A DNA stretch of 64,000 nucleotides from Citrus sinensis (lineage: Eukaryota; Streptophyta; Magnoliopsida; Sapindales; Rutaceae): assembly GCF_022201045.2 (NCBI RefSeq), contig NC_068559.1:19463501-19527500 (forward strand). Reading direction: 5' to 3'. The notes beneath the pieces are model-generated. The model saw only the letters and a program-made list of their open reading frames with translations. It was not told the DNA's origin and ran no database searches. Made by a program: the position numbers and the translations under genes. Positions 3,205 to 40,781 of this stretch are shown here, in pieces. Each line of letters starts with the position of its first letter. Position 1 is the stretch's first letter.

Positions 3205-5322
3205 ATGAAGGTAATCCCTCCGGGGTTTCGGAAACTGTGGAAGGAATGGGATCTGAGAGTGATGGTTCTACTCAGCCTAGCCCTCCAAATAATACTCATC
3301 GTTTTGGGTCGTCGCAGAAGGTTTGATTCCAGGCTTTGGATCAGAATTGTTGCGTGGTCCGCATACTTGGCTGCAGACTCTGTGGCGACTTTTGCTCTTG
3401 GTATTCTTTCAGGCAACCTCACCGATTTGTTTGATGAACACGCCAAAGCTCTCGGCGCAAACACGGAATTAGAAGCATTCTGGGCTCCATTTCTGCTTTT
3501 GCACCTGGGTGGTCCGGATACTACAACCGCTTATGCCTTCGAAGATAATGAGCTCTGGTTGAGGCACTTTCTTAAACTTATTGTCCAGACAATAATTGCT
3601 TTTTATGTCTTTCTCATGGCTTGGACAGGTGGTTCCCGCCTTTCAATGCTGTCCATTCCAATGTTTCTTGTTGGGCTTATCAAGTATGGAGAACGAACGT
3701 GGGTGCTCTGGTCAGCAAGCTACGAGAAGCTTAGACAGTCCTTGTTCAGTAGCACTCGTCCTCATCCTTATGATGACATTGAATTTTTCACCAAAGAATA
3801 TTATTTAAAGATTACTCATGGGTATGTTACAAGACCAACACTGGTTTCCGAGGTCCAGCTTCGCACGGAAAAATTGCTGAGAGCGCACGGGTGTCTGCGA
3901 CTAACTAAGGGCCTTTTCTTGGATGCTGCACTCCGCTCCAGAGACAGAGACAGTAGCAAATCTGTTTTCAGAAATCTTTCTTTCGAGGATGCATTCAAAG
4001 TTATTGAAATGGAGCTCGGAATGGTATATGATTTGCTTTACACCAAGGCACCCCTACTGTATACTCTCTGGGGGCTGCCCTTTCGCCTGCTTACTTTCTT
4101 TGTCACCGGTTGTGCGTTGGTGCTCTTCACTTTTCTTCAGCGAAGCCAAAAACAAAAGTACTCAAAAGTTGATCTTTTCGTGACATTCTCATTGCTAATT
4201 GTTGCAATTATCCTAGAGATATATTCGGCAGTGTTTATGTTGATCCCTTCAGATCAATTTCTTATTTGGTTAACTAGGAGGTGTATCAATAGTAAAGTTG
4301 TTAATGCTTGGAAATTTATACCTAAGAGCCCTAGGTGGTCACGTAAAATGTGTCAGCTCAGTTTGCTAAGCTTCATCGTAGTTGAACATGAACCCAAACC
4401 CCTGCCTTGCCGCAAAATCCTTAAGCTCTTAGGCATTGAGAAAAAGCTAGAAAAGCAATGGTGGGTAGCTTATGAAGAAGTGCCTGAAGATCTTAAAGAA
4501 GTGATCTTCCGGTTCTTCGAGGAGAAAGCTAGAGAAACGAAGCCATGGGAAAGCAATAGCAAATCTTCCTTTATCATGGTGCCTCGTGCCCAAGGAAATG
4601 TAGATGATGATGACAAACTGATTACTGAGGCTGCTCCAAACTTTGAAGATGACCTTGGGAAAAGCATTCTCTTCTGGCACATTATTACGGAAGTTTTCTA
4701 TTGCTTAGATGAGCAGATCTTTGAAGCAGACATTGCTAAACACTGTGAGTCAATCAAACAAATCTCAAGATATATGTTCTATCTGTTATTGGTGCATCCT
4801 TCCATGTTCTCAATTGGGGTACTGGACCTGAGTAGCTTTGAATATACGGTTCATCGTTTTAGGGATGAAATACAAGAAGTAGTTCCTAACTATCATAGCA
4901 AGTACGCGGCGTGTCGAGATCTGGTTAAAGAAGTGTACTATAGTAAGTTTCGCAGCTCGGACAGACTTCTATACGATGCATCGCGTGCAGCTGCTAGTCT
5001 GAGGAAGAACCTCGGAGAACAGGTTGAAATTAATTAAAACCATAATCCTGCTTATTTATCAGAGGTACTTTCAATTAACAACGAATAATTATTTGATTCT
5101 ATTGATTATGATCGATAGGCACAGGCTCAGGGACAGGGTCTAGCTCTAGCTGAGAAATGGAATGAATTGGGGGGTACTTGGTTGAAAATTCTAGCATTTG
5201 CAGCACGCAAGAGCAAAGGAAACCAGCATGGTCAACAACTGCGACGTGGTGGTGAATTGCTCACTCATGTTTGGCTTCTCATGGCTCATTTTGGTTTAAC
5301 CGATCACTTCCCGATGTCATAA
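3205..5322 (+). CDS. DUF4220 / DUF594 plant membrane protein, two exons
   Basis: Exons 3205-5022 and 5119-5322 join in phase 0 across a 96-bp GT-AG intron, giving about 673 residues. I prefer the ATG at 3205 because the protein then starts with MKVIPPGFRKLWKEWDLR, the usual N-terminus of the family; an in-frame ATG at 3175 would add ten residues. Six hydrophobic segments are visible: residues about 14-31, just after 45, 130-150, 155-170, and two near 295-345. The central DUF4220 region precedes a soluble half. Reading past the first exon gives a stop after four codons, but the second exon supplies the C-terminal DUF594 block (GGELLTHVWLLMAHFGLTDH), so splicing is clearly correct. The biochemical role of the family is unknown. 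The frame is intact and this is probably a functional gene. Confidence 0.9.
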
Positions 5323-7261: not shown

Positions 7262-10200
7262 TTGGAAGATCAGTCTTCAGATCAAGTACCTGTAGAGGAG
7301 CTGGAGACAGTAAGCATGGGACCAGAGAATCCGGGAAAAACGATCAGAATCGGGTCGAGACTTAAGGAAGAGCAGAAGCAGGAGTTGGTGCAATGCTTAC
7401 AGGCTCATACAGATGTGTTTGCTTGGGCACATGAAGACATGCCAGGGATTGATCCTGAGGTAACATGTCATAAGCTGGCAATAAAGAAAGGTGCTCGGGC
7501 AGTAAGGCAGAAAAGGAGGTGCTTCAACCAGGAGAGGTATGAGGCTATAAATGGCGAGGTGGAAAAGCTCTTGAGAGCATGGTTCATTCGGGAAGTCAAT
7601 TATCCTGAGTGGATATCGAATGTGGTGTTGGTGAAGAAAGCAAATGGCAAGTGGAGGATGTGTGTAGATTTCACAAATCTCAACAAGGCGTGCCCAAAAG
7701 ACAGCTTTCCTTTACCAAAGATCGACCAGCTAGTAGATTCAATAGCTGGACACGGCCTGCTTAACTTCATGGACGCGTTTTCGGGATACAACCAAATCCC
7801 CATGTACGAGCAGGATGAGGAAAGCACGACTTTTATTACTAACCAGGGTTTGTTCTGTTACAGGGTAATGTCATTTGGTCTTAAAAATGCTGGGGCCACG
7901 TACTAGAGGCTGGTGAATAAAGTCTTTAAGCCATTGATTGGGAGAACCATGGAGGTGTACGTGGACGACATGATAACCAAGTCGAAAATCCCGAAGGAAC
8001 ATGTCGGACACCTCGAGGAGACATTCAGGCTTTTGAGGAAGTATAAGATGAAGCTCAACCCGGAAAAGTGTGCTTTTGGGGTCGAGTCAGGGAAATTCCT
8101 TGGATTCATGGTGAGTCATAGGGGGATCGAAGTAAATCCCGAGAAAATCCAGGCAATCGTGCAGATGAGGTCTCCTCGTAGCCTGAAGGAGATGTAGAGC
8201 CTTACGGGGAGGTTGGCGGCATTGAGCTGATTCATATCCAAGGCTACAGATAAGTGTCAGCCATTTTTTCAAGTGATAAGGAGGGGAAAGAAAACAGAAT
8301 GAACCCCAGAATGTGAAGAAGCCTTCCAAAACTTGAAGCAGTACTTGCAACAAGCACCTCTGCTGTCCACACCGAGGGATGGGGACAAGTTATTTTTGTA
8401 TTTGGCGACATCAGATCGGGCCACAAGTTCTGTTCTAGTGAGAGAGGAAGAAGTAGTTCAGTACCCGATATACTACACTAGCAAGGCCCTGCTCGACGCT
8501 GAGACCAGATACCCACCGTTGGAGAAATGGGCACTTGCCCTTGTGGTTGCTGCTCAGAAGCTGAGGCCATACTTTCAAGCATTCCTAGTCTCGGTAATAA
8601 CAAACCAGCCATTGCGTCAAACTTTACACAAGCCAGATGCTTCTGGTCGACTCGTCAAGTGGGCTATAGAGCTGAGCGAGTTCGACATTGATTACAAACC
8701 CCGAGTAGCGATAAAGGCGCAAGCAATGGCCGATTTCGTAGCAGAGTTCGCAGAGCCTGAAATATGTTTGGACCAGCTGGATATTGCCACAGACAGTAAC
8801 GAAGCCTGAGTATGGCAGATGTCTGTAGATGGGTCATCAGGGGAGCAGGGATCAGGAGCAGGAATTGTCTTGGAAGACCCAGAGGGGGATGAGATCTCTT
8901 ATGCTGTAAAGTTAGAATTCGCAGCCACAAATAACCAGGCAGAGTACGAAGCCTTGATAGCAGGTCTGGAATTGGCTAAGGCCGTGAAAGCAGATAGAGT
9001 GAAGATCAGAACTGATTCCCAGCTGGTTGCGAATCACTTCAGTGAAAGATTTCAACCGAGAGAGGAGAAGATGGAGCAGTACCTGAAGATAGTCAGGTAG
9101 ATGATGGGGAAATTTGAAGCGGTAGAGGTGATACAAATCCCCAGGGAGCAGAATAGTCAAGCAGATATTTTGGTCAGAATGGCAGCGGTAGCAGACCCAA
9201 AAATGCCAAAGTCGATCCCTCTGGAGGTGAAGTCCAGCCCGAGTATCGAGCAAAATCTGGAGGTGCTGCGTATAGAACAAAAATGCTCATGGATGGATCC
9301 GATAATTTCATACCTTAGAGACGGGGTATTACCACCAGATAAGCTACGAGCTCAGAAGATCAGAGCCTAAGCCTCGAGGTACACCATGATTGATGGAGTA
9401 CTATATCGGCGAGGGTATACGCTACCGTTCCTTCGGTGTTTGGAAGAGGACGACGCGGACTACGTACTGAGAGAAGTACATGAAGGAATTTGCGGAAACC
9501 ATTCTGGTGGGAGGTCACTAGCCCACAAGGTTCGAAGGCATGGATATTTCTGGCCGACAATGCACCAGGATGCGCAGGAGAAGACCAGGAGTTTTGTAAG
9601 TTGCCAGAGTTTTGCGAGTTTCTCCAACCAACCACCAGAGAAGCTCACCTCTATGGCCTCCCCTTGGCCATTTGCTCAATGGAAAATTGATCTGATCGGC
9701 CCGTTGCCAAAGGGACGAGGAGCAGCAACACATGCAATAGTTGCGATAGATTACTTCACGAAGTGGATAGAGGTAGAAGCCCTTAGCAGAATAACAGAGA
9801 AGAAAACAACAAACTTTGTGTGGAGAAACCTAGTCTGTCGGTACGGGATCCCTTATGCCTTGGTAACAGATAATGGCAGGCAGTTCAATAATCACAGCTT
9901 CAAGAATTTCTGCCAGAACCACGGGATAGAGTTGAAGTATTGCTCGCCTGCTCACCCTCAATCTAATGGACAAGTAGAAGCAGCCAACAAGACGATCAAG
10001 AGGCTTCTGAAAACCAGGCTTGGAGCAAAAAATGGTGCATGGGTTGAAGAGCTATCAGGTGTTTTATGGGCATACAGGACAACCCACAAAACAACAACTG
10101 GAGAAACACCATTCGCCTTGGCCTTCGGACATGAAGCGGTCGTACCAGCCGAGATAGGAACGACCACGCACCGGACAGATCATTTCGATGAGCAGGAGAA

Positions 10201-10525
10201 CAACGAGCAGATGTGCCTGAATCTGGATTTGCTAACCGAGAAGAGGGACCAGGCATCGAAGCGATCAACCATTTACCAGCAGAGGGTAGCTCGGTATTAT
10301 AACCAGAAGGTAAATGTACGGTAGTTCAGGGTCGGAGATTGGGTGCTGAGGAGAGTGAATCAGAACACCAAAGACCCGACCCAAGGAGCGCTTGGACCAA
10401 ATTGGGAGGGGCTATATAGAGTCAAGTAGATGGTGGGACCCGGAGCGTACAAGCTGGTTCGCACGGACGGCCACGAGGTGAAACGCCCATGGAACGCAGC
10501 ACGCCTCAGGAAATATTTCCAGTAA
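7262..10525 (+). pseudogene. Ty3/Tat pol remnant (RT, RNase H, aRNase H, integrase) with nine in-frame stops
   Basis: All recognisable domains lie in one reading frame from 7262 to a terminal TAA at 10523-10525 (1087 codons), interrupted only by nonsense codons and no frameshift. Stops start at 7904, 8195, 8228, 8300, 8807, 9098, 9368, 10322 and 10427 (five TAG, three TGA, one TAA). Domains: reverse transcriptase with KWRMCVDFTNLNKACPKDS and the YVDDM catalytic box near 7957; RNase H about 8333-8760; a second, archaeal-type RNase H from about 8822 (VDGSS, AEYEALIAGLELA, TDSQL); integrase with an altered HHCC finger and DLIGP, TDNGRQFN and QSNGQVEAAN around its acidic residues. No chromodomain is visible. 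Inactive. Confidence 0.92.
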
Positions 10526-15279: not shown

Positions 15280-17935
15280 GGTTTAATAATGATGGTTGAT
15301 TGTTGACAACCTCTTATGGTGATGAAGATGTGATAATTGCAGTTAATTCAACTAAGAGTTTGAGCACTGCATCTAATCCTTATAATTCCCTCGCATTTCT
15401 TGGAGGTATTCTCTGCTCAAAGGTCTCCATGCTGCTCCAAGTAAGTTTTAAATCTTTATTTACAAGTTCAATACGATCTTCTAATTCTTATTTATGTTGT
15501 AATGTGTTCTTATTGCCTACTTCATGGACATTTCAGCATGATTGGGATATGTTATACTGCAAGAAAATTTCTAAGCCTATATCTATTTTAGCCTTTATAT
15601 TAAAAGGATTGGGTTCCCTTGACTTAATTTTTAATGCATTGGATCTATTCAATTCAATGGTAGATGGGTGTGGATATAAATGCTAATTTTTAACTTTAAC
15701 TTCGCATCATTAGATTGACTAGATCCAATGGATGGAAAATTAAATCGTGATTTTAAGTAAGATTGAAGTCAAGGGAACCCAATCCTTTTCATAAAGGCCA
15801 AATAGATGTATAGGCTTTAGAAATTTAGCAGGGCATTTATTATTTTTTTCATCTTCCCTCTTGTGGATTATCAACCTTAAAAATAATATGTTTTGCGTAG
15901 TAGTTAATGGACAATGTGTTGTATTTTACGTTAATGCTGATGTGCCGAATTGAACACGTGATTCTCCAATCACATTGGGATATTTGATGAACTGTTAATT
16001 GTGAACCTAGGTTTCCGTCAGGCTTGTCTCTTTAAGTTGATGTTCTTTATCATGTCTTCGGCTGTGAAAATGACAGAATTGTGTGTATGTCCTTCCTCCT
16101 GCCAGAATGTTTCTCCTTCAGGGCCTGTCCGCTTCATACGAGACCACCACTCAGAGTGGGCTGATTTCAATGTTGATGCCTATTCTGCCGCATCATTGAA
16201 AGCTGGTTCTTATGCTTATCCAGGAATGAGGCCTACCAGCTTTGCTGGGATTCAAATTATCATGCTGTTTGGCCACACAATTGGGCATGAAGGGGTCTGT
16301 CATTGAATAGTCTTCTGCCCTTCCCTCTTTAAGTATTATTATAATGACGAAAATTTGACAGTTGCATGCTGTTCATATCAAATGTGTATTTTACAGCATA
16401 ATTATTCTAAGCTGTTCTATTACTTCTATTTCGGATGTTTTCAGTTGCTTGAAGTTATTCGACTTGAAGGGCATTCTCTTGAACAAGAAGATGCTTTTGA
16501 ACCAAGAGACGTTCATCTACTGCAGGTGATTTTTGTCTTGTTATGTTTCTGTCAATTTCTCTGTTGCTCTTTTTGAAAAAAATAAAATAAAATGAGGTAG
16601 AAAGGCCCTAATTCATTTACTATTCTGTAATTGCTTTTTATTTTGGCCAGGTATGCGGGGGTTGATGAAAATGCTTTGGGAGCATGTTCAGAATTTGTCT
16701 TTGCTCCAATTGATAATATGTTTCCAGATGATGGTCCATTGCTACCTTTTGGTTTCTGCATTATCCCATTGGATTCAAAAACAGTATGGTTTAACTTCAC
16801 TTCACTTAACCTTTCATATCTTTTTGCAGTATTGGTGTAAGTATTAATAAGCTTGGCATATTCCTGAAGAATGAAAACTATCTGCTTTAGTTAAACTTTT
16901 GGCTTCCTTGGTTTACCCTAGTGAACTTCATTTTGTTAGAATTGCTAATGTGCATTTACATCAGTTTGAGGAGTTGTGGCAGAAAGAGATTTTCTCATTT
17001 GACTCGTAAACATTAGTTTAATAAATGAAATTGGTTAACACCTGGATAAAAATTTATGGTTGTAGACTGTCTTGCTTGATTTCATACTGTTGTCATCTAC
17101 TTCAACATGGTAATGCTGTTATTATACAGCCTGATTCACAGGATATGTTGACTACTCATAGAACCCTAGATCTGACATCCAGTCTTGAAGTTGGGCCAGC
17201 AACAAACCCTGTTGCAGGAGATTCTTCATCATGCCGTAACACATGATCAGTAGGGACCATCGCTTTCCAGTTTCCTTTTGAGAGCAATCTACAAGATAAT
17301 GTAGCAACCATGGCTCATTGGTATGTCCATAGGTGGAACTTCATCTGTTCAACGGGTTGCCATGGCCATCTGTCCATCAGGATTGACCCCAACTTTGGGA
17401 CTAAAGCTTTCACCAGGCTCTCCGGAAGTGGTTACACTAGCTCACTGAATCTGTCAGAGCTATAGGCATGTACTGAATTTTTTTTTTTTTTTACTATTTC
17501 ATGATAAATATTTTTACGAATTAGATGCTTGTAATTGACTGCTATAGTCTGGACAAGCTCAATTTCCGCCACTAGAAAAGAGTTCAATATTGCATTCATA
17601 ATCTTGATTTAGACATGGTCAAGCTATTTTCTGTCAGGCCGTAACAAGATACTTTCAAGTGAAATATGTTCCAACAGTCATACTAGTGTCTAGTTTTCAA
17701 GTGAACATCTTCTATCAAAGCCGAATTGATAAGCTGTCAAGTGAATAACGTTCTTGGTGGGTTAATGAAACCCCTCAACTAGCATTCTTGTGCGAGTTGC
17801 TAATATTTCCTTCCTTTTTCATCTTCTGCTGTTATAGTTTAGGGGCAGAATTGTTGAGATCTGATTCTGTTAGTGGTGACTCTGTGTTGAAAAATCTTTG
17901 GCAGCATTCAGATGCTATATTGTGTTGTCAAATTA
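15280..17935 (+). pseudogene. HD-ZIP III (REVOLUTA-type) pseudogene, 3' half: end of START-associated region and MEKHLA start
   Basis: Exons: about 15280-15440 (DEDVIIAVNSTKSLSTASNP, LAFLGGILCSKVSMLLQ); 16106-16294 (SEWADFNVDAYSAASLKAG); 16445-16525 (LLEVIRLEGHSLEQEDAF); 16651-16793 (GVDENALGACSEFVFAPIDN); about 17130-17470 (THRTLDLTSSLEVGPATN, FQFPFESNLQDNVATMA); about 17841-17932 (AELLRSDSVSGDSVLKNLWQ). Order and phases follow class III HD-ZIP genes. Breaks: an indel plus stop right after the LTR, a frameshift at the start of the fourth exon, a stop after SCRNT, a frameshift after MAHWYVH, and loss of the rest of MEKHLA after ILCC. Same strand as the 5' half at 6626, so most likely one locus split by the retroelement. 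Confidence 0.88.
15562..15829. repeat. MITE-like element with about 60-bp terminal inverted repeats
   Basis: The arm at 15562-15625 (from ...AATTTCTAAGCCTATATCT to GGGTTCCCTTGACT) is repeated in inverse at 15767-15829 with few differences, around a core of about 140 bp. It lies in the intron after the first 3'-half exon of the HD-ZIP III pseudogene. I could not fix the target duplication, so the superfamily is unassigned. Confidence 0.65.
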
Positions 17936-20633
17936 ACGGTATATCGTGTATAAAAGTGTTTCTGAAAATTCTCCAGTAATATTAAGGTGTGCAATATATA
18001 TATATATATATATATTAGAAATATTCCAATACACTATTATACTATATGGCTTAACAATTTTCTCTGCGCTTTAAATGTGGGAACTCATTAAATAATGATT
18101 ATGTATATATATATATGAGTGCTCATCTGATTCAGTATCCTATCTATCTATCTATTTATCCATCTATCTATCTATATATATATATAAAACGAAGTAAGGA
18201 TGTCCTCATTACATAAGAACTCTATCAAGCCGTTGCATGCAAAGTTCTTCCTCCCGGAGAGAACACTATCCACTGTCTTGTTTTCTCTTTCATCATCTAG
18301 TCTTTTGTGTGAACATTTTAATTTATTTGTATGTCATTTTCCCAATATAAATATGAAAATGCAAAAAAGTTAAAAAAAGTTTTGTGCTATTAAATCCCAG
18401 TCTGAGGTTTACATTATATTAATTTAATTGAATTGTTGTTTAGTTGGCCTTGGTGGATCTCAAGCTCCATTAGAGAAAATAATTTAAAAAAAATAAAGAG
18501 AAAATTATTTAAGTTAATAATTAGCTCCCATTAAATTTTTTAAAGTAGTTGCCATTAAAATTATAAAAATAATCATATAAACTCGTAAAACCATAAAATT
18601 CAAATACTCATAAAGTTTATACTTTAATTTTGAGAATTATAAAAGTCCAAACTTTAATTAAAAAAAAAATTCATAGGAACTCTTATGGTGATTTTACTAT
18701 TATTTAATTTGGTCTTCACTAAATCTATTTAAATAACTTCTATAAAATTATAAACACATAAATTTTAATTTATATATATATTTTTTATCATTAGTATAAA
18801 AGAGCTCACGAAGAGTTAAGGCAACACTAATCGGGAGTGTGCAATCCCATAAGCATCATTACAAAGTAAGCCAACAATAACAGGAGGAGGAGAATGAAGA
18901 GCATGCAAGCCTAAAGGAGTAGTTAAACTATAGGAAGCAAATTGTGATGCTGATTTCCTTGCTTCCAAATAAATCATTTTAATAGCAGCACAATTTTAAT
19001 TTTTATATTTTGTTGTTATGCAATTTAGTTCGGATAAATCATTTTTTGGGTACATCATATGTAATTTAGTTCAGATAAATCATTTTATTTTAGGATATGT
19101 AACTGCTCCGTACTTTCTTTTTGTAATTTAGTTCCTTTTTCTACTTGGGATTTAGAAAGTTGAAAGTTGAAACTGATACCTTATTTAACTAGTCTTAGTT
19201 ATCACTTCCAGACAAGATTTAGCATCACGGGCTCATTATTATTTTGCTGCTTTGCAAAACCACTTCCTTATCAAGCTAATATGTTAAGTATTTAATGCAT
19301 TAGTATGGCCACCGTAGCTTGCTTATGGACATTTTTACGGTACGTGTGTGAATTTGAAATTGTTGAGGCGGAGGCCTCAAAAATTCGGCATTGTTACAAT
19401 GCTGCTGCATTGTTTATGAGCTCAGAAATCAGCCAATAGTCCTGGCTCCTCTGGGATTGTTTCATTATTGATGTATGAATATTTAAAAGTTCGAAAGTTT
19501 TGGGTCCAGGGTTTTGAATTTTGAGGAGATGCATTGTTCAGTGTGCATTTAAGCAGTCTTGAAAGCTACATTAATGGATGTAGCTGTACATTTTCTGTTA
19601 AGGCTGAACAAGTGTTGATTATTTTATTTATGAAAAGTATCAATGCACATTCCAATCTTGCTACTAGAATTAAGTGTAGCTTAAGTAATTAATATGCTCC
19701 TTTATTAGCAAGTATGGAATGCGCTTTGGAATGTTCATCGGGCTTGAAAATCTAGAACATATTAGAGGTATTTTTCTTAGGTTGTACTCTACTAATATAG
19801 GGGCATCTTAATTACTTAGGCTATACTTGCTTCTACTTGTACGTTTGGAATGTGCATTCATTCTTTTCGGCTAACCAAAAAAAGAAAAAGGTTTACTCTT
19901 TTACAGTTGGACCTACTTTGAATGAAAGTATTGATTAAGTGAAAACACAAAAATAAATGTATTAATGAAGGAGAAATGGTATTTGGACACTATGAGGATA
20001 AAATGGAAACAGACACAATGAAAATTATGTGTTTTTCATATAAAGAGATCTAGTTTGTGTCTCCATTGGTCGTTGAAGTAACAAAATATCACTTATCTTA
20101 ATAAAAATAAATAACATTGGCATGTCCATGCAATAATCCTACAATGATTCACATCAATTTGTGACATATAAGAGTTTTAAATAATAGTATAATAATGCAT
20201 ATTGAGCTGTGAAAATAATATTAGAGATTCAAAGAATTTACAAATTTTGCGAATGTTTTAATGAAATTTTTAAAATTCTCAGTTTTACTTTTGTTGAGTT
20301 GTATCCTACATCAATGAGTGAAAAGAAGCTAATTGAATTTATAAATAAAAATAAGTTCTTCCACTATGGAATAGTCTTTTACCCGTTCCAAACAACCTTA
20401 AGGGAGATAATCCCATTTCCCTCGTGCTGTAAGTAAACAGTTGAGTTGATAATTATCCAATTCCTCGCGTGAACAAATACACATTCAAGAACATGAGATT
20501 ACACCCTTGGCATACGATCTGAGAGACGAAAATATAATTGAGATTCCATCAGTTGGGTTGTCCTATCTCAAATTAAACTCTATCTTCTTAATTGCTCTGT
20601 CCCTTTCAAGCGTAACTTGCCCATTCCCTTTCC
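17936..20633. other. Intergenic DNA with microsatellites
   Basis: No gene was recognised. It contains (TA)n near 17996-18014, a TATC/TA microsatellite at about 18138-18186, and a short direct repeat around 'AATTTAGTTC(A/G)GATAAATCATTTT' near 19024 and 19067. The last few hundred bases form the presumed promoter of the NLR gene. A 75-codon frame at 20209-20436 has no recognisable content. Confidence 0.5.
18138..18186. repeat. TATC / TA compound microsatellite
   Basis: Repeated TATC units, with one TTTATC and one CATC interruption, run into a (TA)n tract. Simple repeat only. Confidence 0.85.
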
Positions 20634-23600
20634 ATGGGTGCAAAAAATATTGTCGACCATTTGATTCGGAAATTAGAAAATCCGGTCTTTGACGAAGCAA
20701 AAAGTAGCAACCCCAAATTTGAAAAACAAGTGCAGGATATCAAATCGTTGAAAGAATCTCTGAAAGATGAAGATCAAGACTATGTTGACTTAGGCTTAGC
20801 ATCTGCCCGCCTCCTGGAAGCAGTTTACTCAGTAGAGGATGTTACTGACACTCTACTTATCCGAAAAGAATTTCCGGATATCAAAATAAGAGAAAATCTG
20901 TTCAAGAAATTTTGTTCCCCTTTAATGTGCTTCACGCCTTCTTCTTCAAGTATCCAGATTGATTATTTAACCGATGAGATGACGAAATTCATGAATCAGA
21001 TCAGGGACTTGTCCACTGATCACTCGGTAAACAAGAACGAAGCAGCGACGACTATCTTGAATCTTGATGATGTTGTTGGTGGCATTGCCAAGGAGACGAT
21101 GACAATGAGCTTTCACAATAAGCAGCAGCAGCAACGATGGCAAAGAATTTCCGGTCTTCATTTTGAAGAAGAAATGAACATCATGGTTGGTAATGAAGAA
21201 CGAATAAAGGAGCTGGCATCTCTGATAATCCCAGAAAACAATCTTGAAGAACAAATAAAGGAGCTGGTATCTCGACTATTCCCGGCATACAATCACGATG
21301 AGAATGATGATAATGATCAGCCTAATAATCAAGCCATCATTACGGAGTTCCTTCTGCAAGATCCTGATCTTGACCGTCATCATTCTGCTCATCAAGTCAT
21401 TGCAATCGTTGGTGAAGAAGGCTCCGGAAAAACAATTCTAGCAAGAACTGTGTACGATAGAGTTGATGTGAAGCGGCATTTTGCAAAACGAGCCTGGGTT
21501 TGTGTTCGTGGTGAGGCCAAAGTAAGGGATGTCCTGATTGACATTTTACAACAGGTTGACGATGAGACGGTGGCGGATGCATCAGCTCCGGAAGGAGAAT
21601 TGGCGTCAAGTCTGTCCACACTCTTAGAAGAGACCAGCTATCTAATTGTCGTGGAAGATGTCGAGACACCTCAAGTATGGAAAGGTCTCCGAGATGCTCT
21701 GTATTGCAATTCCTCATCTGGCAAAATAATTTTAACTACTCGCAATGCAGAGAATATACCACCGGAGGCTGAGGCCGCGGGCGCAACTCTACATTTAAGC
21801 CGATTAAACAAAGAGGAGAGCTGGAAACTATTGTTGAAAAAGGTACCATTACCAAGAGTAGCTGAATCTGATGATGGCTTGAATAATAGTTCAGAGTCTA
21901 TCAACACACTTAAGGAGCGAATCCTGAAAATATGTGGCGGTTTACCTTTACGAATAGGCTTGCTAGGAGGTTTGCTGTCTACCAAAGAAGCAAACTACCA
22001 AAAGTGGTCAAAAGTGATTGAAAGTGTAGAAAATGTAGAAGATAACAGCGGAAGCGGGACAAGGAATCTTGTAGATTTAAGCTATCAAGAACTACCTTCA
22101 CAGTTACAGCAATTGTTTCGCTGCATCCGACTTTTTCCTAGAGCATTTTCGATCCCTGTAAGGGGTTTGATTTGTCTATGGTGCGCTATGGCCACGATTG
22201 ATACTGATCTGGCTGAAATCTACTTTGAAGAATTAGTCATTAGAAACCTGATCTATGTAACAAAATGGAGGCGAGATGGAACCCCGAAAACGTGTCGTAT
22301 GCCTGGTGCTGTATATGATGCCGTCTCTCGAGAGGCAGAAAATGCAAGACTATTTCACCATCCATCCGAAGAACATCAACCGCAGCAGCAGGAGGAGCAG
22401 CAGCGGCGGCGATGGCAAAGAATTTCTGATCTTTATTTTAAAGAAGAAATGAGCATCGTTGGTCTTGCAGACCAAATGAAGGAGCTGGTATCTATACTAA
22501 TCCCGGAACAGAATCACAATCCCAATGACGATCATGATCGTGACCGTTGTCACTCTACTCATCAAATCATTGCAATTCTTGGTGAAAGGGGCTCCGGGAA
22601 AACAACTCTGGCAAGAACTGTATATGATAGAGTTGATGTGAAGCGGCATTTTGCAAAACGAGCCTGGATTCGTGTTCGTGGTGACGCCAAATTTAGGGAT
22701 GTTCTGATTGATATTTTACAACAGATTGACGATGAGACATTGGTGGAAGCATCATCTCCAGAAGCAGAATTGGCGTCAAGTCTCACCACACTTCTAAAAG
22801 AGATCAGCTATCTTATTGTAGTGGAAGATGTTGAGACACCACAAGTTTGGCAAGTTCTACGAGACGCTCTGTACGCCTCATCCAAGGATAGCAAAATAAT
22901 TTTAACTACTAGCAATGCAAATAATATACCACCGGAGGCTGAAGCTGCTGGTCCAACTCTACATTTAAGCCGATTAAACAAAGAGGAGAGCTGGAAACTG
23001 TTGTTAAAAAAGGTGCCAGTAGCAACAGCAGCTGAATCTGATGATGACTTGAATAATAATTCAGAGTCGATCAACACATTCAAGGAGCGAATCCTAGAAA
23101 TATGTGGCGGTTTACCTTTACATATAAGCTTGCTTGGAGGTTTGCTATCTACCAAAGGAGCAAAATATTGGTCAAAAGTGATTGAGCATGCTGATAACAG
23201 CAGAAGTGGAAGCGGCACCGGAAGTGGGGTAAGTCTCTTAGCTTTAAGTTATAAAGAGCTACCTTCCCAGTTAAAGCCATTTTTTCTCTACGTGGGGATT
23301 TTTCCTAGAGGATTTGAGATCCCTGTGAGGAGATTGATTCATCTATGGTGCGCAGAGGGATTTGCGGCACCCATTGACACTGATCTGGCTGAAATGTATT
23401 TTGAAGAATTAGTCATTAGAAACCTGATCCAAGTAACAAAATGGAGACTAGATGGAACCCCGAAAATGTGTCGTATGCCCAGTGCTGTCTACAGCGTCTT
23501 CTCTGAAGAGGCAGAGAAGGCAGGATTTTTTCACCATCAGTTCACAGAGCAACAACAATCTCCGTTTGCAGTACGTCGTCTGGCAGCCTACTTGTCCGGC

Positions 23601-24839
23601 GGCGTCAACACCAAGCTTATTCGCTCTTCATTTCTTGACCGGAGCTGGCACCTGCGTACTTACGTTGCTTTCGACAATCGTATTTATTGCTCACCTGCTA
23701 TCGAAATATCTATGTTTCTTGATAAGATTATCTCTAACAGAGGGTTAGTGTTGCTTACGGTGCTTGATCTTGAGGGCGTATATAAGCCTAAGTTATCTGA
23801 TCATGTAATAGGAAAACTGTTGCACTTGAGCTATCTAGGCTTAAGATCAACTTTCATAGATTCTCTTCCAAATTCTGTGGGCAATCTGCGATATTTGGAG
23901 ACTTTGGATGTGAAGCACACCAAACTGCGTTATTTGCCTGATTCCATATGGAAAGCAAAGAAGCTGCAACATCTCTATTTGAACTGGATTCATTCTGCCA
24001 TAAGCTGGCTAAACTTCTCTTCGCTAAACAATTTGCAAACTTTGTGGGGTCTCTCCATGGGAGATGATTCTCTTTTCAATCAAACATTTGACTTTACAAA
24101 ATTGGCTAGCCTCAGAAAGCTGGGTGTGAAATGCTATTCACAGCGAGTAATAGATTCCATCGCAGAATTGGTTTCTAGATCGACCAGGCTTCAATCCTTA
24201 AAGTTGGTATATGCATGGAGGGACGACTACAGCGACATACCGTTCAAGGCACAAGCCAACCTGCAGGAACTGTATCTGCGAGGAGCTCTGCGTATGTTTT
24301 CTGCTAAAACCAGCTCTTTCCCTCGTAACTTAAAAATAGTGACTCTGTCAATGTCAAGACTATATTGGGATCCAATGGAAGCGCTGGAGAAACTCTGTCA
24401 CCTGAACATACTCAGGATCATCGGGGAAGCCTACGAAGGTAAAAAAATGACATGCCAAGCCGGAGGATTTCCACAACTGCGTGTCTTGAAACTCTGGAAT
24501 TTGTCTAGTTTGGAAGAGTGGACAGTGCAGGAAGCGGCAATGCCTCGCCTCAGAGAATTAGAAATCAGAAGCTGTAACAAACTCAAGCCACCTGAAGGAC
24601 TACGAAACCTGGCCGCTACTTTGAAAGATTTCGTATTAACGAATATGCCATCGACTTTTGGGGAAGAGGCTCAACGAATGCTGCAGGGTACGGATGTATA
24701 CATTCAGAAGAATCAATGGCCGCCTTTCCTATCTCTGGTCAGTCCTCTCATTTGCATTTGCCCCTGTGCAGTAGCCCCCGCATTATTTCAACACTTTTCT
24801 TTTTATTTTTCTTCCCGAATTTTCACATTCACATACTGA
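20634..24839 (+). CDS. CC-NB-ARC-NB-ARC-LRR immune receptor-like protein with duplicated nucleotide-binding module
   Basis: One uninterrupted frame of 1401 codons. Residues 1 to about 130 are an Rx-like coiled-coil domain with an EDVID-like VEDVTD near residue 67. Two NB-ARC modules follow: P-loops GEEGSGKT at 260-267 and GERGSGKT at 650-657, kinase-2 YLIVVEDVETPQVW in both, and CGGLPL at about 434 and 824. The modules are 390 residues apart and very alike, including the preceding WQRISxLxF(K/E)EEM block, so this is an internal tandem duplication. A canonical MHD is lacking; the equivalent site reads CRMP(G/S)AVY. LRRs run from about 1036 to 1370. Such proteins detect pathogen effectors in the cytoplasm. 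The last 36 residues look like intron read-through (candidate donor GTCAGT at 24738), so the true C-terminus is unsettled. Confidence 0.88.
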   Translation: MGAKNIVDHLIRKLENPVFDEAKSSNPKFEKQVQDIKSLKESLKDEDQDYVDLGLASARLLEAVYSVEDVTDTLLIRKEFPDIKIRENLFKKFCSPLMCFTPSSSSIQIDYLTDEMTKFMNQIRDLSTDHSVNKNEAATTILNLDDVVGGIAKETMTMSFHNKQQQQRWQRISGLHFEEEMNIMVGNEERIKELASLIIPENNLEEQIKELVSRLFPAYNHDENDDNDQPNNQAIITEFLLQDPDLDRHHSAHQVIAIVGEEGSGKTILARTVYDRVDVKRHFAKRAWVCVRGEAKVRDVLIDILQQVDDETVADASAPEGELASSLSTLLEETSYLIVVEDVETPQVWKGLRDALYCNSSSGKIILTTRNAENIPPEAEAAGATLHLSRLNKEESWKLLLKKVPLPRVAESDDGLNNSSESINTLKERILKICGGLPLRIGLLGGLLSTKEANYQKWSKVIESVENVEDNSGSGTRNLVDLSYQELPSQLQQLFRCIRLFPRAFSIPVRGLICLWCAMATIDTDLAEIYFEELVIRNLIYVTKWRRDGTPKTCRMPGAVYDAVSREAENARLFHHPSEEHQPQQQEEQQRRRWQRISDLYFKEEMSIVGLADQMKELVSILIPEQNHNPNDDHDRDRCHSTHQIIAILGERGSGKTTLARTVYDRVDVKRHFAKRAWIRVRGDAKFRDVLIDILQQIDDETLVEASSPEAELASSLTTLLKEISYLIVVEDVETPQVWQVLRDALYASSKDSKIILTTSNANNIPPEAEAAGPTLHLSRLNKEESWKLLLKKVPVATAAESDDDLNNNSESINTFKERILEICGGLPLHISLLGGLLSTKGAKYWSKVIEHADNSRSGSGTGSGVSLLALSYKELPSQLKPFFLYVGIFPRGFEIPVRRLIHLWCAEGFAAPIDTDLAEMYFEELVIRNLIQVTKWRLDGTPKMCRMPSAVYSVFSEEAEKAGFFHHQFTEQQQSPFAVRRLAAYLSGGVNTKLIRSSFLDRSWHLRTYVAFDNRIYCSPAIEISMFLDKIISNRGLVLLTVLDLEGVYKPKLSDHVIGKLLHLSYLGLRSTFIDSLPNSVGNLRYLETLDVKHTKLRYLPDSIWKAKKLQHLYLNWIHSAISWLNFSSLNNLQTLWGLSMGDDSLFNQTFDFTKLASLRKLGVKCYSQRVIDSIAELVSRSTRLQSLKLVYAWRDDYSDIPFKAQANLQELYLRGALRMFSAKTSSFPRNLKIVTLSMSRLYWDPMEALEKLCHLNILRIIGEAYEGKKMTCQAGGFPQLRVLKLWNLSSLEEWTVQEAAMPRLRELEIRSCNKLKPPEGLRNLAATLKDFVLTNMPSTFGEEAQRMLQGTDVYIQKNQWPPFLSLVSPLICICPCAVAPALFQHFSFYFSSRIFTFTY

Positions 24840-26039
24840 CATTTAAAAAAAAAACATATAATTCATTTTAATATCCATATCATATCTTCATAATGGCATT
24901 TTAATTTTCTTTTGACGATAATGCGTTGTGTGCGTATATAGTCTATCTTCTAATGGAAAGAAATCATTTTATTAAAGTTAGAGAGCCTAATTAAAAGATA
25001 AGAAAAAAAAACATTTTTCAAGACAATATTATTTTTATCTTTTAATTTGATCCTTATATTTATTAAAATAATGATTTCATCAACCATCTCAGTTTGGATT
25101 TTGAGGAAGATAGAAAATAAAATGAAAAAAAAAATCAATTCGAGTCCAATCCTCTCCTTTCTTTATTAATGTTAAACCTTCAGCTGCAAGTCTTTTTAGA
25201 TTTCTCATTGTTATCTTATTTTTCATATAATAATTCTGAAACCAGGGATAAGCACTTACACGGAAAAGCACGAGACTGGCAAAAAGATGCAGTGTTCTGG
25301 ACCGTAGACTACGATCGCCAGATTAAAATTGTCATATTCATTCTACTACATTTGGCAGTAGCATTTGTTGCTGCCTTCCGTTTTTTTTTTTCTCCCCCGC
25401 CCGGTCTTATTCTTCACCGAATAATGAATGTCTAGCCTGTATAGAAGAAGTGCATATGTTTGTTTGTGTGTACAAAATATCTGTAAATATGTACAGTGTT
25501 CGTATTTTATAATTTGTAATTTTTGTTTTTATCTAGTTAGAGCACAGTATGTACCGTACCACTGTTGCAATCAGTTATTGAATCTATAGTTGTACAATTG
25601 TATTAACTAGATCTAATGGTTGAAAGCAACAGTAGTACGGTACCACTGTTGCAACATAGCTGGACCCTTTCGTTTTCTAGACATAATTTTTTTTTTTTAT
25701 GGAGTTTTCTAGACAGATTTGGATTCAATGCATATATGAGTTTTATGTTTTTTTTTTTTTACAAGGATGCGATTACTAGTTATTAGATGATAATTTGTTG
25801 TGATCTGAGTAGCACAAACACGCGATGGATGAATGAATTAAAATGTCATGTTCAAATTCCATAGGATCGCTTTTAATTACACTAAGAATTAAAATTCAAT
25901 CAATTGAATATCCCAGTCAAAATGATATTCACCCATCCATAATCACCACTCCAAGTATTCATTCTGCAGCCTGATTTCAAATCTATACACACAACAACAA
26001 AATCAAAGTTCAATTTTTGGGCATCTTGGAACAAAAATG
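24840..26039. other. NLR downstream region; possible last exon at 25238-25435
   Basis: At 25238-25435 on the plus strand, after an AG acceptor, an open stretch reads DKHLHGKARDWQKDAVFW and then a hydrophobic helix (IVIFILLHLAVAFVAAF) before a stop. It could be a C-terminal exon of the NLR adding a membrane segment, but the donor at 24738 (phase 0) does not join it in frame, so I do not extend the gene. The remainder is AT-rich and non-coding except for the small palindromic repeat at 25551. Confidence 0.3.
25551..25645. repeat. Short MITE-like inverted repeat
   Basis: GTACCGTACCACTGTTGCAA at the left end is mirrored by its near-perfect complement about 75 bp later (AGCAACAGTAGTACGGTAC). Total length is about 95 bp. 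The right arm is followed by another ACTGTTGC, so its edge is ambiguous. No coding content; superfamily unassigned. Confidence 0.5.
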
Positions 26040-33139: not shown

Positions 33140-36021
33140 ATGTCCTCTGAGGGTTCTTTGAATACGGAATTATCGAAGAAGACGTCATTTTTGGGTCTTA
33201 AACTATGGGTTTTGATTGGTATATCAGTTGGTGCTTTTATAGTTTTGATTCTTTGTATCTTATCTGTATGGGTCTCATTTAGGAGGAAATCTAGAAAATC
33301 ATTGGATAAGTTCTCCCTAACCCAAATTCCAAATGTCTCTAAAGACATCAAGGTTGACAGAATTGTGGGCCAGAATTTCAATGATCACCCTGAAAGTGTG
33401 TTTCTCTCAGTCCACGATAAATCAAGTGACAAGAATTCAGAAAAAATGCACGTTCATTTGGGGATGAGTAAATCGAGTGATCCTGACAATATCAGTCAAT
33501 GCAGCTCTGTTCATCATCACGAAAGAGCATGTAGTTCACAATCAGGGGAAGAAGGAAGCTCTGGCGCCGGTCATAAGCATTCTTCACTGTCTTATGGAGG
33601 ATTGGTGACAGCCTCTCCCTTAATTGGTTTGCCAGAAATTTCACATCTTGGTTGGGGCCACTGGTTTACTCTTAGGGATCTTGAAATTGCAACAAATCGT
33701 TTCTCAGCAGAGAATGTGCTTGGGGAGGGTGGATATGGAGTTGTTTACAAGGGTAGATTGATCAATGGATCCGAGGTAGCAGTGAAGAAGCTTCTTAATA
33801 ACCTGTAAGGATACTTTAAAAGCACCTTATCTGGCTTTTCTTATGCTTTATTTGATGTCATTGGTAATAGTGTACTGAATTGGGATTTAGGGGACAAGCA
33901 GAGAAAGAATTCAGGGTTGAAGTGGAAGCCATTGGTCACGTTCGACATAAGAATCTGGTGCGACTTTTGGGCTATTGCATAGAAGGAGTTCACAGGTGTG
34001 ATTCAGCTGCTGTTTATTGATTACTTATTTGTTCTGTCCCATGAGTATGTTAGCATGTTGCTATGTTAATATTGCAAAATTAATTTCTATTGCTCATTGA
34101 ACTGTCTTTAATTGCTTGAGTTGTAGCCTTGAGAACAAAAAGGATGATCACATTTGCATTTAATGATGCAGGATGCTGGTGTATGAATATGTGAACAATG
34201 GCAATTTAGAACAATGGTTACATGGGGCTATGCGTAACCAAGGTAACCTCACTTGGGAGGCCCGAATGAAGGTTATTATTGGTACTGCCAAGGCGTAAGT
34301 TCATTTTCCGGCTCAAAGCAGTTTCATATGATAATTCAAAGTCCCAACTTAATTTTTGATACTACATTTTATGTTTAATTTTAGTTTGGGCTAGTTTTAT
34401 TATGTTTTTTGTTGGAGTCTGAAAAAACCAAAGAAAATTAAATGATCTTGGGTTGCATAAATGATCTTGGGTTGCAGTCTTGCTTATTTGCATGAAGCAA
34501 TAGAGCCAAAAGTAGTTCACCGGGACATAAAATCAAGCAACATCTTGATAGATGATGAGTTTAATGCCAAGGTATCTGATTTTGGCTTGGCAAAGCTCTT
34601 GGATTCAGGAGAGAGTCACATCACGACCAGAGTCATGGGAACATTTGGGTAAGAGTTGTTTCCTATTCTCCTAATTAATTAATAATCCTTTAATTGCTAA
34701 GTATTTGCTGATTGGAAATTTCTCTTAACTCTCAGTTATGTGGCACCTGAATATGCTAATACTGGCATGTTAAATGAAAAGAGTGACATTTACAGCTTTG
34801 GAGTCCTACTTCTCGAAGTAGTTACTGGAAGGGACCCCGTGGACTATGGCCGACCTGCTAATGAGGTGAGAAAATCTCCGGTTTGTTGACTAAAGATACT
34901 AAAATCACATTTTTGTTCGTAGTTTCTTTCTCTTTTTCTACAATATGGAGTGCTTTCCTTATGAAGTTTGTAACTGGACATTTTTTTAGTAAGAATGTCT
35001 ATTAAGCACTCCATATGCTCATGGCAGGTCAATCTTGTTGAGTGGCTGAAGATGATGGTGGGGACAAGGAGAGCTGAGGAAGTTGTGGATCCAAATCTTG
35101 AAGTCAAACCTGCAACGCGAGCATTAAAACGTTCACTTCTAGTTGCACTCAGGTGTGTGGATCCTGATTCAGAGAAGAGACCCAAAATGAGTCAAGTTGT
35201 ACGGATGCTTGAAGCTGATGACTACCCATTCCGTGAGGTATGAGTTTTGTATTTCCCAGAATTGATCATAAGTGTTTACTTGTCCAAACCTCCATCTGCA
35301 TTTTTTCCTTGAATTCCTCTGCAAGTTTGATTGAGTTCATGGATCTTCTTTTTGGTGATCTGCATTTTGACACATAAGCTGAACATTGATAAGATTATAA
35401 TTTGGTTTGCTTGAGAATCACATATAAAACCTAAATATCTAATAACTTTGATACGGCATTATTTTTCAAGTGGAAGGTTCATGTGGCAGCTATTGACGCT
35501 GAAGTATGAAGTGTTCATAACCAGACTGTTAGATCATGGTTGGTATGGTCTGACTCCACTCTCGAAGAGAACTCTCTGTGTATTGTGTGCATAAATAGTA
35601 ACCACAACATATCTGACATGATAAATTTCGGATTTATGGTGTTGAACACCACCCGAACCATGAAATTCCTAAATTATTATGGGTTGAAATTGAAATCCTG
35701 TTTAACTTTGGCTTGCATGGCTATGCCTTTGAATGTTTTAATTTTCAATCAAAATAGTTGAGGTGCTTCCTATAATTATGAAAATTGATTCAATCGTTTG
35801 ATGAAGGATATCATAATTCTGTCTGGTACCATGCCTATCATACTTAAAATTTCTGTTGTAAAGCAAATGGTTATGATACTTGTCAAATCTATTTCCAGGA
35901 TCGAAGGAACAGGAAGAGCCGCACAACAAGTATGGAAATTGAATCCTTAAAGGAATCAACGGAAATTGAAAGCAAAGTAGAAGATTCAGAGGGCCGTATA
36001 TCCGAGAAAACTCATGGATAG
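33140..36021 (+). CDS. Receptor-like protein kinase with short extracellular part (At5g18500/At2g42960-like), seven exons
   Basis: Exons 33140-33804, 33891-33995, 34172-34294, 34478-34648, 34736-34865, 35028-35237 and 35899-36021. All junctions are GT-AG and phases agree, giving 508 residues. The N-terminus is short (about 20 residues), followed by one transmembrane helix (about 22-47), a basic stop-transfer patch, a Ser/His-rich linker, and a Ser/Thr kinase domain: glycine loop GEGGYG at 195, Lys 216 (VAVKK), HRDIKSSN at 312, DFG at 332, [20 protein letters not shown]. All catalytic residues are present. The extracellular part is too small for a typical ligand domain. Family members sit at the plasma membrane; substrates are not evident from sequence. 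Intact. Confidence 0.95.
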
Positions 36022-38549: not shown

Positions 38550-40781
38550 ATGGAAGCAAATTCATCCAGTAATCCAGGAGTTAATATCTCTACACCTTCA
38601 ACAACTCAAAGTACAACTGATAGTGCTATTAATACAAATGCAGGCAATGGAAAAGGTGGAAAAGCGTCAAAAGTATGGGAACATTACACAAAATTAGAGA
38701 ATGATACAAAATGTAAGTGTAACTACTGTTCTAAAGTGTATGCGTATCATTCTAGATTTATTGGGACCCGTACTTTATGGAATCACTTGGCAGCATGCAC
38801 AGCCTATGCTGATAGGAAAGTTGATTTAAAACAAAAAACCTTGGTGTTTGAGGATAACACAACTGGTGGTGGCAGTAATCTTGTGGCAATATCTTGTAGC
38901 AAAGAGGACATTAGAAAAGCATGCATTGAGATGATAATTATTGATGAATTGCCCTTTAGTTTTGTTGAAAAAGAAGGGTTTCGGAAATTTATGAGCAAAG
39001 CTTGTCCAAAACTTGATCGTTTTTCTAGGAGAACTGTTGCTAGAGATGTGTATCAGTTGTACTTAAATGAGAAGAATAATTTGAAAAAAGTGTTTGCTCG
39101 TAATAAGTATAGGGTTTGTATAACAACTGATTGTTGGACTTCAATACAAAATTTGAATTACATGGTTATTACAGCCCATTTTATTGATGATGAGTGGCAA
39201 CTTCATAAAAGGATATTAAACTTTTGCCAGATCGATGATCATAAAGGAGATACAATTGGAAAATTGATTGAGTTTTGCTTGCTTGAATGGGGTATTGATA
39301 GAGTGTTTACAATTACTGTTGATAATGCAAGTTCGAATGATTTGGTCATTTCTTATTTAAAAAAGAAGCTAAATAATTGGGGTGGGCTTGTGTTGAATGG
39401 TGATTACCTTCATGTTAGATGTTGTGCACATATTATAAATTTGATTGTGACTGAGGGGTTGAAAGAGATGAATAATTATGTTTCTAGCATTCGCAATGCT
39501 GTGAAATATGTAAGATCATCACCGGCTAGATTAGTAAGGTTTAGAAAATGTGTTGAGCATGAAAAACTTGATTCTAAACGTATTGTTGTGATGGATGTTC
39601 CTACTAGGTGGAATTCCACCTATTTGATGTTAGAGAGTGCTCTTGTATATCAAAAAGCTTTTGAACGATTGAAGGATGATGATGGATTTATAGATCCTAT
39701 TTTGAAGAGAAAGAGGGTGGAAAAAAAAGGATTGGGCCACCGGAACATATAGATTGGGTGAATGCAAGTGTGTTGAATAATTTTTTGGAGAATTTCTATG
39801 AAATTACAAAAAAATTTAGTGCTTCTTTGTCTGTTACATCACATTTGTATTTTCATGAGATGCATTCTATAGAGTCAAATTTAAAAGGATTGATAGTAAG
39901 TGATGATTCTTATTTCAGTGCAATGGCCAAGAAGATGAAAGAGAAGTATGACAAATATTGGGGTTCCCTCAACACTCTAAATAAGTTGTTAATTGTTGCT
40001 GTTGTGCTTGATCCGCGTTATAAATTGAGTTTTGTGAAATTTTGTTTTGAGGAGTTGTATGATGAAAATGTTGTGTGAGCTCATAAAAGTGATTAAGGGC
40101 TTATTATCTTCTTTGTATGATTTTTACACAAATAATAACTCTAGATGTGATAGTGGTAGCCAAAACCAATCTGTTAATGCTGTCATTTGTCCATCCGAGT
40201 TAGAGAAAAAAAGTGATATTATTGATTCTAGACTAGCCAAGGTAGCAAAACTTTCAAAATGGAAAAAGAAGCAGCTGGAAGAGGATGGTGTAGAGTTGAA
40301 AAATGAAGTGGACAAATATTTATTAGATGATTGTGAAAATTGCTTTGATGATTCATTTGATTTGTTGAACTGGTGGAAGGTAAATGGTGGGAAGTATAAA
40401 GTTTTGTCTAATATAGCCAAAGACATTCTTTCAATCCCAATATCTACAGTTGCTTCTGAGTCTGCATTCAGTACAGGAGGACGCATTCTTGATCCATTTC
40501 GAGCTTCTTTGAGTCCTAAAATGGTAGAGAGCTTAATATGTGGGCAAAATTGGCTTTGTTCTTCTCGTATTGCCGTAGAAGAGGATACATCTTCGGTTGA
40601 AGATATGGCATTTTATGAATCAATTACATCAGGTAAATATTTATATTATGATTTTTATTTTTATTCTATTTATATTTTCCTTGTATTTATTTGTTATATC
40701 ATATATGCCTAATATTTTTATTTTTATTGTTATATAGATTCAAGATTGGCATCAGATTTTGATGTCATTAATTTGGATTGA
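38550..40781 (+). pseudogene. hAT transposase (BED finger, RICESLEEPER-like) with two compensating frameshifts
   Basis: The ATG at 38550 directly follows a splice-acceptor-like TTGTAG. Order: BED zinc finger (KCNYCSKVY ... TLWNHLAAC), RNase-H-like catalytic core (ITTDCWTS and TVDNASSND give two acidic residues), then the C-terminal dimerisation region (PISTVASESAFSTGGRILD). A final short exon at 40738-40781 (DSRLASDFDVINLD) joins in phase after a donor at 40633. Frame is lost at the A8 run 39721-39728 and regained near 40060-40078, so only about 330 bases are out of frame. One of these may be a base-call error; otherwise the element was silenced recently. It could be nearly autonomous. Confidence 0.9.

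What the first reader, a model, noticed from the sequence alone, without database searches (positions are those of the whole stretch)
20634..24839. NLR with two complete NB-ARC modules in one frame
P-loop, kinase-2 and GLPL motifs occur twice at a constant 390-residue offset inside a single 1401-codon frame with no stop. Normal CC-NLRs carry one NB-ARC. Both copies keep the P-loop Lys and the acidic kinase-2 pair, so both could bind nucleotide, and the protein could act as an in-built dimer of switch modules. This may be a new receptor layout or a recent unequal duplication.
Basis: partly seen in the sequence, partly recalled or inferred. Interest (0 to 1): 0.78.

Follow-up and report, generated by a model that had tools for sequence, protein, structure and literature searches.

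The report
Citrus immune receptor with doubled switch
A citrus gene for a plant immune receptor carries its nucleotide-binding switch module twice in one reading frame; the doubling is real and of a known kind, but the two copies look unequal, because the front copy has worn away part of the region that moves in a working switch.

Summary
One frame (20634-24839, 1401 codons) encodes two NB-ARC plus winged-helix modules before one LRR. The likely protein is 1369 aa, as the last 32 codons are probably intron. It is not a misassembly: a Citrus sinensis protein has the same layout (95% identity over 100%), and each module pairs with its counterpart there.

The two modules arose inside this gene, after it split from single-NB citrus paralogues. 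Similar doublings arose separately in Betulaceae and Castanea; a single origin of the first modules is rejected.

The 'in-built dimer of switches' is not favoured. Module 2 is constrained (omega 0.39, differs from 1, p=0.001). Module 1 is not distinguishable from neutral (0.85, p=0.56), but the direct contrast is borderline (p=0.054). Module 1 keeps P-loop, kinase-2 and GLPL, while 6 of its 8 own changes at conserved sites lie in the winged helix (p=0.002, post hoc). Front modules of relatives lean the same way.

NLRs with two NB-ARC domains are in print (rice Pib; CNNL classes), so this is a new member of a known kind. A lime protein with one fused module leaves a deletion allele or module skipping open. 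No transcript evidence was available.

The parts
20634..24737 (+). Exon 1 of the NLR gene (1368 codons)
   Evidence: ORF; donor chosen because the resulting C-terminus ...FLSLG equals that of lime protein P0002. No transcript.
25246..25251 (+). Coding part of exon 2 (Gly, stop), giving 1369 aa; the C. sinensis model instead fits a donor after 24687
   Evidence: inferred
20634..21113 (+). N-terminal region (residues 1-160), no Pfam domain found
   Evidence: matches the C8 paralogue at 45%
21121..22380 (+). Module 1: linker, NB, ARC1, winged helix
   Evidence: direct repeats; Pfam and HMM stretch residues 251-584
21411..21440 (+). P-loop of module 1 (GEEGSGKTIL)
21639..21665 (+). Kinase-2 of module 1 (YLIVVEDVE)
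21933..21950 (+). GLPL of module 1
22107..22196 (+). RNBS-D stretch of the winged helix of module 1, with lost conserved residues and a 3-residue deletion
   Evidence: the motif name is recalled
22396..23556 (+). Module 2: linker, NB, ARC1, winged helix; joined to the LRR
   Evidence: direct repeats; HMM stretch residues 641-974
22581..22610 (+). P-loop of module 2 (GERGSGKTTL)
22809..22835 (+). Kinase-2 of module 2
23103..23120 (+). GLPL of module 2
21121..21138 (+). CAG/CAA tract (poly-Gln) at the start of module 1
   Evidence: read from the sequence
22381..22412 (+). CAG-rich tract at the junction of the two modules
23547..23558 (+). GAG/CAA tract at the end of module 2
23748..24608 (+). 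LRR region (residues 1039-1325)
   Evidence: Pfam LRR_14
21555..22724 (+). Candidate 1170-nt in-frame GT-AG stretch at matching places of the two modules; the donor is weak beyond GT (judged by eye)
   Evidence: hypothesis only

Best explanation
This is one plant NLR gene of a citrus genome whose NB-ARC/winged-helix unit was duplicated in frame, probably by unequal exchange near CAG-rich (poly-Gln) tracts at the ends of the unit. The modules are unequal. Module 2, joined to the LRR, is the working ADP/ATP switch. Module 1 keeps a nucleotide-binding core, but its winged helix, the part that moves in a switching NLR, has decayed; it most likely acts as an extra non-switching NB body between the N-terminal region and the true switch, where it could hold the receptor off or space protomers. 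Shown: the layout, the internal origin, the shared layout in C. sinensis, the motif states and the winged-helix changes. Supported but not settled: unequal constraint. Inferred: the exchange points, that the frame is one mRNA, and the role of module 1.
Against: Equality of omega over the whole module is not rejected at 0.05 (p=0.054), nor in the NB part (p=0.24). A relative-rate count is only mildly uneven (38 against 24 own changes of 313 sites). Between the window and C. sinensis the modules differ alike (21 of 428, 23 of 396). The RNBS-D test was framed after seeing the changes. Tests of conserved against variable columns per module were not significant (Fisher p 0.23-1.0). No transcript, protein or function data.
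Confidence: 0.55

Rival explanations
1. In-built dimer: both modules are working switches that bind and exchange nucleotide and pair within one chain.
For: Both keep P-loop Lys, kinase-2 acids, RNBS-B and GLPL; module 1 is modelled as a closed-type NB-ARC; equal divergence of the modules between the window and C. sinensis.
Against: Winged-helix lesions confined to module 1 among the tested columns of RNBS-D; no measurable constraint on module 1 as a whole; the tandem model was too poor to show pairing (pLDDT 56.6).
Confidence: 0.15
2. Relic: module 1 has no role and is kept open only because the LRR lies downstream in the same frame.
For: omega 0.85, not different from 1; single-NB paralogues exist.
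Against: NB motifs unbroken; point estimates in the NB part are below 1 (0.55, but p=0.18); the layout is kept in two citrus genomes.
Confidence: 0.2
3. The working product has one module: either some alleles have lost a unit by crossing-over, or a 1170-nt in-frame stretch (21555-22724) is removed as an intron.
For: Lime P0002 (979 aa) changes once from module-1 to module-2 residues, is exactly 390 residues shorter, and agrees at 297 of 307 and 655 of 672 residues on the two sides; GT and AG stand at matching places.
Against: The C. sinensis model keeps both modules and has Ile, hence probably no GT, at the donor codon of module 1; the donor is weak by eye; an annotation artefact between near repeats fits too.
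Confidence: 0.08
4. Assembly artefact joining two neighbouring genes or copying a module.
For: None found here; NLR regions are hard to assemble (general knowledge).
Against: No N in the window; same layout with module-wise pairing in C. sinensis; the junction is an in-frame poly-Gln linker; one full-length DNA match in the assembly.
Confidence: 0.02

Closest known systems
Citrus sinensis P0001, 'putative disease resistance protein'
   Same: Same two-module layout, 95% identity over 100%; same winged-helix changes in module 1.
   Different: Predicted C-terminus uses another splice donor.
Rice Pib and PibH8 (CC, two NB-ARC, LRR)
   Same: Two NB-ARC domains in one NLR; the passages seen name kinase 1a, 2 and 3a in both domains but place the GLPL motif in NB-ARC2 (PMC4917536, passages; PibH8: PMC12533315, passages).
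   Different: Introns lie inside the NB-ARC domains of Pib; here both modules are in one exon-like frame. No sequence comparison with Pib was made.
CNNL and NNL classes in grape, poplar and Eucalyptus
   Same: Two NB-ARC domains before an LRR (PMC3782705, PMC4709456, passages).
   Different: Listed as classes; the passages seen give no module-by-module evolution.
Multi-NB NLRs of Betulaceae (P0011-P0013, P0121-P0124), Juglandaceae (P0125, P0126, P0129), Castanea (P0042) and Malvales (for example P0041, P0053, P0203)
   Same: Same broad clade of NLRs, extra NB modules in front, LRR-side module complete or nearly so.
   Different: Separate duplications for Betulaceae and Castanea; 18 of 26 tabulated proteins have no winged helix in the extra modules.
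Single-NB citrus paralogues (P0003-P0005; C8 locus L010)
   Same: Same clade and overall plan; the C8 protein differs from P0003 at 2 of 915 residues; a DUF4220 gene nearby.
   Different: One NB-ARC module.

Membership tests
Plant NLR (NB-ARC-LRR receptor) | NB-ARC domain | tested here: met
   Pfam NB-ARC 243.4 bits, cut-off 23.5, two stretches
Plant NLR (NB-ARC-LRR receptor) | C-terminal LRR | tested here: met
   LRR_14 132.6 bits, cut-off 40
Plant NLR (NB-ARC-LRR receptor) | MHD motif (usual, not strictly defining) | tested here: not met
   MPG and MPS at the aligned place; His in 7 of 188 readable of 208 other rows, so a trait of the clade. The motif's place is from recall.
CNNL class (CC-NB-ARC-NB-ARC-LRR) | Two NB-ARC domains in one protein | tested here: met
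   as one mRNA not shown
CNNL class (CC-NB-ARC-NB-ARC-LRR) | N-terminal coiled coil | tested here: inconclusive
   No Rx_N match at E 0.001; Pfam can miss diverged CC domains; Alnus P0011 does match Rx_N
CNNL class (CC-NB-ARC-NB-ARC-LRR) | Expressed as one transcript | not testable with these tools
   No RNA data held
Tandem pair of working switches | Intact nucleotide-binding motifs in both modules | tested here: met
Tandem pair of working switches | Intact winged helix in both modules | tested here: not met
   Module 1 matches 29 of 38 covered conserved columns with 3 of 41 deleted, module 2 matches 34 of 41
Tandem pair of working switches | Nucleotide exchange in both modules | not testable with these tools
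   needs protein

The most novel reading that the evidence does not exclude
In this NLR clade, NB-ARC doubling has arisen several times and follows one course: the LRR-side module stays a switch while front modules lose the winged helix and end as bare NB domains, as in the multi-NB proteins of Malvales. Front NB domains would then be a convergent regulatory part of a distinct receptor type, and the citrus gene an early stage of that course.
Probability: 0.27. Interest if true: 0.62.

Novelty: new member of a known kind. Interest (0 to 1): 0.42.

Why it matters
If front NB modules regularly lose the moving part but keep the nucleotide pocket, they are a natural test of what nucleotide binding does in an NLR apart from switching. 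The citrus gene is useful because module 1 still has all parts in outline, a single-NB paralogue lies in the same genome, and a lime form with one fused module may exist as a natural control.

Tried and rejected
Misassembly: rejected. Recent duplication: rejected, dS about 0.3-0.35 and shared with C. sinensis. One origin of the doubled modules: rejected by AU test for the first modules of Citrus + Betulaceae + Castanea (p=2e-52) and of Citrus + Castanea (p=3e-32); Betulaceae with Juglandaceae first modules also rejected (p=3e-4). These groups were named after the tree had been seen, so the p values are optimistic; in the 35-row tree the Betulaceae first modules do not form a clean clade.

AlphaFold of the tandem (8 rows) was poor, pLDDT 56.6, and not used. 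Conserved-against-variable column tests per module gave nothing significant (Fisher p 0.23-1.0). The stop-codon simulation (P(0 stops) 0.003-0.017) is not used as evidence of function, since the LRR downstream keeps the frame open anyway. The third allowed protein search was not used. Both protein searches listed only the best 120 of 180 and 962 matches, among about 8000 scored candidates each, so relatives are a sample.

Literature searches: 'two NB-ARC domains' + NLR (6 papers), 'CNNL' + NB-ARC (7), 'duplicated NB-ARC' (1), 'NBS-NBS-LRR' + citrus (0), 'tandem NB-ARC' + 'NB-ARC domains' (0), 'multiple NB-ARC domains' (1), a six-term citrus NBS query (3), 'double NB-ARC' (0). I opened nine papers, by 'find' passages only; none was read whole; the others were seen in listings. 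The passages shown from the two citrus papers (PMC4374887, PMC13119830) describe no two-module gene. PMC10027608 mentions a wheat NLR candidate with two NB-ARC domains at the Rwt4 locus (passage).
Full report
What is there. The frame 20634-24839 on the + strand has 1401 codons. Pfam finds NB-ARC twice, the winged-helix family WH_DRP twice and one LRR region. The repeat unit runs from about 21121 to 22380 and again from 22396 to 23556; the paired blocks are 79-90% identical in DNA, 81.7% over 388 aligned codons, and the proteins are 65% identical over 423 positions. Both copies keep the P-loop Lys, the acidic kinase-2 pair, RNBS-B and GLPL. The motif called MHD in other NLRs reads MPG and MPS here; this is not special to the gene, since His stands at that position in only 7 of 188 readable of 208 other rows. 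The reading end is probably off by 32 codons: a donor after 24737 and an acceptor ending at 25245 give a 1369-aa protein whose end equals that of a lime protein, while the C. sinensis model fits a donor after 24687.

Where it comes from. The closest named proteins are from Citrus. The window lies in a 300-Mb assembly, contig C4 at 19463501-19527500. A 915-aa single-NB paralogue on contig C8 differs from P0003 of Citrus clementina at 2 of 915 residues, so a mandarin-like citrus is likely; the species is my inference.

Is it real. P0001 from C. sinensis is 1370 aa and 95% identical over 100% of the query; its cluster holds 15 sequences. In a tree of 87 module rows, module 1 of the window is sister to module 1 of C. 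sinensis (100/99*), module 2 to module 2 (100/97*), and the five citrus rows of this gene, the lime protein included, form one clade (100/95*) next to the single-NB proteins P0003-P0005. So the unit was doubled inside this gene, after the split from those paralogues and before the split of the two citrus genomes. The rows come from 58 proteins that I picked out of 221; two of these (P0181, P0190) gave no row.

How often it happened. An HMM made here and run over 221 proteins gave more than one stretch in 41, the window included. I tabulated 26 of these as multi-NB and left out 15; most of the 15 are one domain split in two or carry a short piece, but P0089 and P0209 do carry an extra NB stretch without a winged helix, in line with the pattern below. 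Castanea P0042 has two sister modules (100/100*), Betulaceae have their own pair, and several Malvales proteins have three NB stretches. One clade for the first modules of Citrus, Betulaceae and Castanea is rejected (AU p=2e-52; groups named after the first tree). Gene-model errors in those proteins cannot be excluded.

Are the modules equal. With the C8 paralogue as outgroup (366 codons), a three-branch codon model that I wrote gives omega 0.85 for module 1, 0.39 for module 2 and 0.45 for the outgroup. Module 2 differs from 1 (p=0.001), module 1 does not (p=0.56), and equality of the two is borderline (p=0.054). By part: NB 0.55 against 0.25 (equality p=0.24), winged helix 1.07 against 0.28 (p=0.034). 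Simple counting gave 0.77 against 0.30, with module 1 above module 2 in 99% of 300 bootstraps and module 1 below 1 in 81%. Against this, own amino-acid changes are only mildly uneven (38 against 24 of 313 sites), and the window and C. sinensis differ by similar amounts in both modules (21 of 428, 23 of 396).

How it may have arisen. CAG/CAA-rich tracts stand at the start of module 1, at the junction and at the end of module 2. Exchange near such tracts would keep the frame; this is an inference. A 4.47-kb piece of the locus, 99.2% identical, stands on contig C1 and stops inside module 1; it differs within the CAG tract.

A single-module form in lime. P0002 (Citrus x aurantiifolia, 979 aa) carries module-1 residues up to one point and module-2 residues after it. 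It is 390 residues shorter than the window's model, and 297 of 307 residues before and 655 of 672 after the junction agree with it. The window has GT at 21555 and AG just before 22725, 1170 nt apart at matching places of the two modules. A deletion allele by crossing-over, removal of that stretch as an intron, and an annotation artefact all fit; I cannot tell them apart.

How it probably works. Established knowledge of NLRs is that the NB and ARC parts hold ADP at rest and that exchange for ATP moves the winged helix and opens the protein. Module 2 has what that needs, apart from the clade-wide change at MHD. Module 1 has the pocket but a worn winged helix. I infer that it is an extra NB body in front of the switch. 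Whether it restrains the receptor, spaces protomers or does nothing is open.

What is known. Rice Pib has two NB-ARC domains (PMC4917536, passages), as does PibH8 (PMC12533315, passages). CNNL and related classes are listed in grape and poplar (PMC3782705, passage) and in Eucalyptus (PMC4709456, passages). The passage in PMC3782705 also says that tandem assemblies recall homotypic dimerisation, so the dimer idea is not new. A complete NB-ARC preceded by a truncated one is noted in coffee, with wheat cited (PMC9301388, passage), and RefPlantNLR has entries with multiple NB-ARC domains (PMC8559963, passages). The gene is therefore a new member of a known kind; the unequal wear of the modules and the repeated origins in one clade are what I would add. 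I saw no passage that states them, within the searches named in Tried and rejected.

Noticed in passing
3175-5037; L010 3-224 with L013 8204-9899; L011 8389-8925; L012 1388-3298: A DUF4220 gene lies near this NLR clade at three places of the genome (C4, C8, C7), with a second copy left of the window; two predicted proteins, Dipteronia P0047 and Corchorus P0095, have an NLR followed by DUF4220 in one model. A kept linkage of the two genes is possible.
   Followed up: partly
L009 1013-5478 (contig C1), matching window 17333-21801: A 4.47-kb copy of the gene's upstream region, N-terminus and part of module 1, 99.2% identical, cut off inside module 1; its frame is broken in the CAG tract.
   Followed up: partly
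L010 7601-8932 (contig C8): A second, fragmentary NLR copy beside the intact single-NB paralogue.
   Followed up: no
7262-10324: Reverse transcriptase and integrase ORFs of a retroelement, in pieces.
   Followed up: no
38550-40712: BED zinc finger and hAT dimerisation ORFs of a hAT-type transposon, in two pieces.
   Followed up: no
33140-33808: ORF that reads like the start of a receptor-like kinase; no Pfam match at 0.001, so the name is by eye.
   Followed up: no
25551-25643: Inverted repeat with 36-nt arms, 78% complementary, 21 nt apart, downstream of the gene.
   Followed up: no
both modules; clade-wide: The MHD histidine is absent in nearly all rows of this NLR clade (7 of 188 readable of 208 have it), with Pro or Leu the commonest; how such NLRs sense nucleotide is open.
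   Followed up: partly
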